This document shows positions 24,154 to 24,719 of a stretch of DNA of 64,000 bases, piece after piece (the stretch's first letter is position 1; every line of letters starts with the position of its first letter). This stretch comes from Methanococcoides methylutens MM1 (GTDB lineage Archaea > Halobacteriota > Methanosarcinia > Methanosarcinales > Methanosarcinaceae). The DNA is taken from NCBI RefSeq assembly GCF_000970325.1, contig NZ_CP009518.1, forward strand, positions 2,294,001 through 2,358,000, read 5' to 3'. The position numbers and the translations under genes were made by a program. The notes beneath the pieces are model-generated. The model was not told where the DNA came from. It ran no database searches and saw only the letters and a list, made by a program, of their open reading frames with translations.

Positions 24154-24411
24154 GTTCTCACCTTGATTAATAGTATAATAATATGTTATTTGAAACTGAT
24201 AGTTATCAGCAATACAGGCTGGCTACATGCATTTCAAAACATATAACTGTTTTGGGATAGGGGATGACATTTCCAAAAAAGGAGATGAGCTCCCGGACAG
24301 AAGAAGATGAAGAAGAACAATATCAGGGGATACATTTCAGATAATCCATTAAGACTTATAAAAAATAAAGCCCAGGCTGAGAGAACAACAACAATAGAAA
24401 ATTAAGTTAAT

Positions 24412-24591
24412 GGCAGTGATCAGGGGCCATCTTATCGACCTCTCCGGGCGACCCTACCCCGATTCTCCCCATCTCAGGTCGACCTAAAAGGTTTACAAAT
24501 GCCAGATTAGCCTTGTATGGTCATGGGATCTTACTCCCAATGGCATCCCACCTTCTGACTCACTGCCACACCGTACCATTTGTGATACGGT
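24412..24591 (-). ncRNA. Structured RNA of unknown family
   Basis: The 566-bp gap between gatB and L40e contains this GC-rich block in AT-rich surroundings. GGCAGTGATCAG (24412-24423) pairs with CTGACTCACTGCC (24555-24567), a 12-bp closing helix with one bulge. Inside, TCGACCT (24435-24441) pairs with AGGTCGA (24476-24482). A second hairpin (24570-24591) pairs eight bases around a six-base loop; one pair is G-U only if the minus strand is transcribed. An archaeal TATA box lies about 25 bp before the expected minus-strand start. No open frame, tRNA, SRP, RNase P or 5S signature was recognised. Confidence 0.6.
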
Positions 24592-24628
24592 AATAGAGAA
24601 TTTGTTTTTAAACTACTAATTGATTTTG

Positions 24629-24637
24629 ATATATAAC
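24629..24637 (-). promoter_or_regulatory. TATA box for the structured RNA
   Basis: GATATATAA on the plus strand reads TTATATATC on the minus strand, 80 bp after the gatB stop. A start site near 24606 would precede the first RNA hairpin by about 15 bases. Confidence 0.5.
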
Positions 24638-24719
24638 CTGGTCACAAAAAAGAATGTAAGGGTTTAAAAAAGAAAAATGGAAAAGGAAAAAGAAAAGTAA
24701 GAAGGATAAGACCGAAGCC

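What the first reader, a model, noticed from the sequence alone, without database searches (positions are those of the whole stretch)
24405..24640. Unidentified structured RNA between gatB and L40e
A GC-rich 180-base block stands alone in AT-rich spacer, with a 12-bp closing helix, at least two internal hairpins and an upstream minus-strand TATA box. One hairpin needs a G-U pair that exists only in minus-strand RNA. It is not a tRNA, 5S, SRP or RNase P RNA by any motif seen. It could be a conserved Methanosarcinales small RNA.
Basis: partly seen in the sequence, partly recalled or inferred. Interest (0 to 1): 0.65.

Follow-up and report, generated by a model that had tools for sequence, protein, structure and literature searches.

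The report
New structured RNA family in methanogens
Between two ordinary protein genes lies a gene for a small folded RNA that matches no catalogued family, keeps the same shape in five genera of methane-making archaea, and has its own private promoter; what it does in the cell is still unknown.

Summary
The finding is real and its reading largely right. The block (RNA body 24409-24594, minus strand) is an independent structured non-coding RNA. No Rfam family matches it. The own genome has two copies, and all ten other sampled genomes of its genus have one or more. Covariance models extend the family to four more genera of the same taxonomic family. A model trained only on two distant genera independently finds the window copy, full length (E 3.6e-8). 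Distant members fold separately into one architecture: a 5' hairpin, a long closing helix, and a junction with two arms. Covariation is strong and G-U asymmetry favours the minus strand. A 28-base upstream element with a TATA box occurs in 20 searched genomes only at these RNA genes. The site behind gatB is shared by three genera; extra copies in this genus carry gatB-tail remnants, so they spread as DNA duplications. SRP and RNase P RNAs lie elsewhere. The patchy, multi-site distribution and lack of a reading frame point to a trans-acting RNA. I favour protein binding or titration over antisense pairing, but that step is inference. No transcript has been shown.

The parts
24409..24594 (-). 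Body of the structured RNA (covariance-model match, P1 to end of P2)
   Evidence: R1 match G000:C1:2318409-2318594, 190.6 bits; R2 match of the same extent, 39.9 bits, E 3.6e-8
24397..24606 (-). Predicted transcript, about 205-210 nt (start from the TATA box, end in the T-rich stretch after P2); inferred, not shown
   Evidence: Sequence, conserved upstream and downstream stretches
24624..24651 (-). Private upstream element TTTTTTGTGACCAGGTTATATATCAAAA with TATA box (24628-24636)
   Evidence: Only two matches in the genome, both at RNA copies; in 20 genomes only at RNA genes
24595..24614 (-). Second conserved element, AGTTTAAAAACAAATTCTCT, around the predicted start
   Evidence: Two matches in the genome, both at RNA copies; alignment
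24570..24591 (-). P1, 5' hairpin (9 bp)
   Evidence: Three pairs with changes on both sides
24555..24567 (-). P2, 5' strand of the 12-bp closing helix
   Evidence: 98% of cells paired
24412..24423 (-). P2, 3' strand of the closing helix
   Evidence: 98% of cells paired
24488..24554 (-). Arm A: stem P3 with hairpins P4 (24524-24539) and P5 (about 24511-24522)
   Evidence: P5 has a C-G to U-A change in nine copies; same arm in independent folds of distant members
24434..24483 (-). Arm B: stem P6 with G-rich cap (24452-24470)
   Evidence: Double changes in P6; folds of distant members

Best explanation
This is a gene for an independently transcribed, structured, non-coding RNA of about 205-210 nt, of a family not in Rfam. 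Shown by computation: the family, the minus strand, the architecture (5' hairpin P1; closing helix P2; a junction with arm A = P3 carrying P4 and P5, and arm B = P6 with a G-rich cap), the private upstream element, and DNA-level duplication of the gene in this genus. Inferred: a TATA box at 24628-24636 starts the RNA near 24606, it ends in the T-rich stretch after P2, and it acts in trans. Least certain step: it most likely works by binding a protein, as a compact RNP or titrating scaffold, with arm A as the binding core and the G-rich cap of arm B as a possible second site, rather than by a linear antisense seed. Several gene copies under one private promoter would then set its dose.
For: Two models trained on different genera find each other's members. 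The window copy is found, full length, by the model from other genera. Independent MFE folds of distant members agree, with z -4.0 to -8.5. Covariation: 32 cells with changes on both sides against 9.1 in shuffles, score 0.145 against 0.112, 0/500 shuffles; slid partners lose the pairing; the 7-sequence set likewise, 0/500. Upstream element exclusive to the RNA genes. Copies at unrelated sites argue for action in trans. No conserved ORF on either strand. The most conserved block is the P3-P4-P5 arm, and no long conserved unpaired stretch is seen.
Against: No transcript, protein partner or phenotype is known. The G-rich cap is reduced in short copies (L011, L068), so it may not be needed. Most genera of the family lack a detectable member, so it is not a core RNP. 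The window copy's own MFE does not form P3-P5 as in the consensus and its z-score is only -2.4. The P3 pairs are weaker than the rest (76.8% of cells).
Confidence: 0.5

Rival explanations
1. A base-pairing regulatory sRNA: an exposed loop (the G-rich cap of arm B, or the P4/P5 loops) pairs with target mRNAs and blocks or stabilises them, as described for M. mazei sRNA154 and sRNA162.
For: This is the mechanism reported for the best-studied sRNAs of the family (PMC5867862, PMC3510493). G-runs near the tip of arm B recur in several genera.
Against: Loop sequences drift between genera and short copies lack part of the cap.
Confidence: 0.3
2. A small selfish DNA unit (transposon-like repeat) whose hairpins serve its own movement, not a functional RNA.
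For: Several copies per genome at different sites; copies carry remnants of gatB, so DNA moved.
Against: Covariation and G-U asymmetry show selection on RNA; the promoter element is conserved with it; single-copy in g3, g12, g6; the gatB site is shared by three genera; no transposase or shared terminal repeats recognised.
Confidence: 0.06
3. A cis-acting leader or riboswitch of the downstream L40e gene.
For: Same strand as L40e, upstream of it in the window and in several g1 and g12 genomes.
Against: Other copies do not precede L40e; L40e keeps its own conserved upstream element after the RNA and in genera without the RNA.
Confidence: 0.03
4. A homologue, diverged past recognition by the present models, of the nine cold-induced 'cold box' sRNAs of Methanolobus psychrophilus.
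For: Those are also several highly conserved sRNAs with a shared motif upstream of their promoters (PMC5378194).
Against: R1 and the promoter pattern find nothing in seven g4 genomes. Their sequences could not be read here.
Confidence: 0.1

Closest known systems
sRNA162 / sRNA171 of Methanosarcina mazei
   Same: Intergenic archaeal sRNA of similar length (191 nt), own promoter, structured, duplicated together with promoter and flanks (PMC3510493)
   Different: Three stem-loops with a 39-nt single-stranded linker, homologues reported only in Methanosarcina; R1 and R2 found no match in g7 and g11 genomes. Sequences were not compared directly
Nine cold-induced sRNAs with 'cold box', Methanolobus psychrophilus
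   Same: Several highly conserved sRNAs with a shared motif upstream of their promoters (PMC5378194)
   Different: Sequence and structure not available here; neither R1 nor the promoter pattern matches g4 genomes; cold induction of the present RNA is unknown
sRNA154 of Methanosarcina mazei
   Same: Structured intergenic sRNA conserved in a genus of the family (PMC5867862)
   Different: Described with two loops and expressed in nitrogen starvation; no match of our models in g7 and g11 genomes
CsrB/RsmZ-type protein-titrating RNAs of bacteria (own knowledge)
   Same: Mode of action only: compact structure, G-rich loops, several gene copies
   Different: No homology and no known protein partner

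Membership tests
Any Rfam 15 family | Match at or above the family's gathering score | tested here: not met
   Whole window: 0 matches; RNA region at E up to 10 only chance matches far below cut-offs; distant members: none at the RNA positions
Archaeal SRP RNA (RF01857) | Match to the covariance model | tested here: not met
   The genome's SRP RNA is at C1:2165037-2165351, 219 bits, not here
Archaeal RNase P RNA (RF00373) | Match to the covariance model | tested here: not met
   The genome's RNase P RNA is at C1:627470-627821, 203 bits, not here
tRNA / tmRNA | ARAGORN call | tested here: not met
   No gene in the window
C/D or H/ACA guide RNA | C and D boxes with k-turn, or H/ACA hairpins with ACA near the 3' end | tested here: inconclusive
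   No such boxes seen by eye at conserved positions of A2 and no Rfam match; no guide-RNA program was run
sRNA162/171 of M. mazei | Three stem-loops with a 39-nt linker and homologous sequence | tested here: inconclusive
   Architecture differs and models do not match g7/g11 genomes; no direct sequence comparison
Cold-box sRNAs of Methanolobus psychrophilus | Cold box upstream and cold induction | not testable with these tools
   Motif and sequences are in supplements not readable here; g4 genomes show no match to model or pattern
The new family described here | P1 hairpin, closing P2, arm A with P3-P4-P5, arm B P6 | tested here: met
   Window copy scores 190.6 bits with R1 (it was in the training set) and 39.9 bits with R2, built without it

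The most novel reading that the evidence does not exclude
A lineage-specific archaeal RNP RNA or protein sponge, dosed by several gene copies under one dedicated promoter: an archaeal counterpart in mode of action to CsrB-type titrating RNAs, gained or lost among marine and salt-loving methylotrophic methanogens.
Probability: 0.2. Interest if true: 0.8.

Novelty: new member of a known kind. Interest (0 to 1): 0.55.

Why it matters
Few archaeal structured RNAs of unknown function are defined by covariation across genera. This one has an exact locus, strand, predicted start, architecture and private upstream element, in a genus that has cultured members, so expression, partner and function can be tested directly. 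An upstream element that occurs only at this RNA also gives a handle for finding its regulator.

Tried and rejected
My first consensus structure joined AAGGTTTA with TAAATCCTT as one helix; weak pair support and the folds of distant members led to arm A as P3 with hairpins P4 and P5. Protein coding: no ORF conserved on either strand, and copies differ by indels not divisible by three. Mobile carrier: no match in the plasmid and phage collections by blastn, and no exact match to one 24-base pattern in viral contigs. Cis-regulation of L40e: rejected by copies elsewhere and by gatB-L40e pairs without the RNA. The MAFFT alignment of all genera together misaligns P3, so the genera were modelled apart. 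A weak R1 match in G014 (E 2.4) was not pursued. Searches for published genome lengths failed on number formats.

Full report
WHAT IS THERE. All of this is in the sequence. Folding energy alone is a modest argument: z -2.4, with 2 of 200 shuffles at least as stable. No Rfam family matches the window at gathering score, and nothing credible matches the region at E up to 10. There is no tRNA.

CONSERVATION. The own genome (2,394,636 bases) holds two copies: this one and C1:1315169-1315371, 78% identical by blastn. All ten other sampled genomes of the genus (handle g1) have at least one full copy, mostly two to four. Genus names are not given by the tools. From genome lengths that I recall, G006 (2,575,032 bases) would be Methanococcoides burtonii and G017 (2,012,424 bases) Methanohalophilus mahii, so g1 would be Methanococcoides and g8 Methanohalophilus. 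This naming is memory, not a test.

DISTANT MEMBERS. A covariance model R1 from 25 copies (24 of g1, one of g8) found a second g8 genome strongly (E 5.9e-31) and genera g3 and g12 weakly, E 3e-5 to 0.4 per genome. Those weak matches are believable for three reasons. They lie directly behind gatB on the same strand, the same site as in the window. An upstream stretch resembling that of g1 precedes them (judged by eye). And a second model, R2, built only from seven g3 and g12 sequences, finds the g1 RNAs back with the same ends; the window copy scores 39.9 bits, E 3.6e-8 in 155 kb. R2 also found a fifth genus, g6, in two genomes (E 5.9e-11 and 3.1e-9), at another site, near a gene that I read as S-adenosylmethionine synthetase (identified by eye). 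In 393 genomes drawn across the phylum R2 found nothing outside g1 and g6; that run used strict filters. The g3 genomes are metagenome-assembled Methanosarcinaceae. Among 112 held genomes of the family, members were found in five of 14 genera.

STRUCTURE. MFE folds of single sequences from g3, g6, g12, g8 and the divergent type II copies give one plan: P1, a hairpin at the 5' end; P2, a helix closing the rest; arm A, in which stem P3 carries two side-by-side hairpins, P4 (loop near GUGUAAA or GUAAGA) and P5 (AACC, about six bases, GGUU); arm B, stem P6 with G-runs near its tip; and in some genera a further hairpin before the P2 3' strand. Single-sequence z-scores of these relatives are -4.0 to -8.5. 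The fit is not perfect everywhere: the MFE folds of the window copy, L011 and L016 depart from the plan in the arms, and type II arms differ in detail. On alignment A2 the structure keeps 90.8% of cells paired; sliding the partners leaves 29-47%. There are 32 cells with changes on both sides (9.1 expected from shuffles), and the covariation score 0.145 is reached in 0 of 500 shuffles. The number of pairs with double changes is less extreme, 10 against 5.7 (9 of 500 shuffles). The seven-sequence set A5 behaves the same way: score 0.179 against 0.107, 0 of 500. The shuffle control does not correct for relatedness and the structure was drawn from these sequences, which favours it in the slid control; the reciprocal model matches and the separate folds are the stronger argument. 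Read on the minus strand, G-U cells outnumber A-C cells 82 to 44 in A2 and 35 to 13 in A5, which favours that strand.

PROMOTER AND ENDS. Type I copies have the upstream element CTTTTTTGTTACCAGGTTGTATATCAAAA, then about 12 bases on the element AGTTTTAAAACATATT. In the own genome each occurs only at the two RNA copies. In 20 genomes of nine genera a 28-base pattern of the element, three mismatches allowed, matches five times, always just upstream of an RNA gene. A T-rich stretch follows P2 in the copies. Start and end are inference.

HOW COPIES AROSE. The gatB-L40e site holds an RNA in the g1 genomes whose site was read; in the clade with G002, G006, G009 and G010 it is a divergent type II copy. 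Several paralogs elsewhere in g1 (L035, L036, L038, L039) carry a decayed piece of the gatB 3' end before their promoter, up to roughly 100 bases of coding sequence. So extra copies were made as DNA duplications that took in the end of gatB. In g8, g13, g14 and g6 the gatB-L40e spacer has no RNA; in g8 and g6 the RNA, when present, is elsewhere. The RNA was not found in the plasmid or phage collections by blastn, and one exact pattern found nothing in viral contigs.

WHAT IT IS NOT. SRP RNA and RNase P RNA are elsewhere in the genome. It is not coding. It is not a leader of L40e, because other copies do not precede that gene. No named family fits distant members either.

HOW IT MOST LIKELY WORKS. 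A gene with its own promoter, at unrelated sites, without an ORF, and with conserved shape but drifting sequence is best read as a trans-acting structured RNA. What it touches is open. The strongest conservation is in arm A, a compact double-hairpin arm, and I see no long conserved single-stranded seed. I therefore prefer protein binding, as a small RNP or a titrating scaffold, over antisense pairing, at roughly 50 to 30. The G-runs at the tip of arm B are a candidate second site, but short copies lack part of it.

LITERATURE. The papers found describe nothing that I can identify with this RNA. The nearest parallels are sRNA162 with its duplicate sRNA171 in Methanosarcina mazei (PMC3510493) and nine conserved cold-induced sRNAs with a shared upstream 'cold box' in Methanolobus psychrophilus (PMC5378194). 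The second is intriguing, because our RNA too has dispersed copies with a shared upstream element; but neither the model nor the promoter pattern matches the seven g4 genomes searched, and the supplementary sequences could not be read. The main text of the 2010 survey of 104 structured RNAs names no methanogen. Absence from this library is not proof that the RNA is undescribed.

VERDICT. A real, covariation-supported RNA family that I could not match to any described one; the kind of thing is known, the family appears new. That it is a conserved structured RNA gene I hold at about 0.95; the protein-binding mechanism at about 0.5.

Noticed in passing
L035, L036, L038, L039 (upstream of the RNA copies): Paralogous RNA copies are preceded by decayed fragments of the 3' end of gatB, marking the gatB site as their DNA source.
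   Followed up: yes
L047-L050 (gatB-L40e site of G009, G006, G010, G002): A divergent type II copy sits at the gatB site of one clade, about 0.5 changes per column away on the tree and without the usual upstream element; it may be regulated differently.
   Followed up: partly
L117 1501-1736 (G007:C2:79695-79930): Weak R2 match (E 0.21) whose first part resembles P1 and the start of P2 of genus g12; possibly a decayed or divergent relative in a genome with one other copy.
   Followed up: no
   Followed up: no
window 24160-24260 and the gatB-L40e spacers of g6, g8, g13, g14: A separate conserved stretch, CCAAAACARTTATATG and following bases, precedes L40e in all of them and looks like the L40e promoter.
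   Followed up: partly
L041 1-238 (G010:C146): One RNA copy lacks the usual far-upstream element and is abutted by an IS630-like transposase fragment (identified by eye), so its promoter was probably replaced by an insertion.
   Followed up: no
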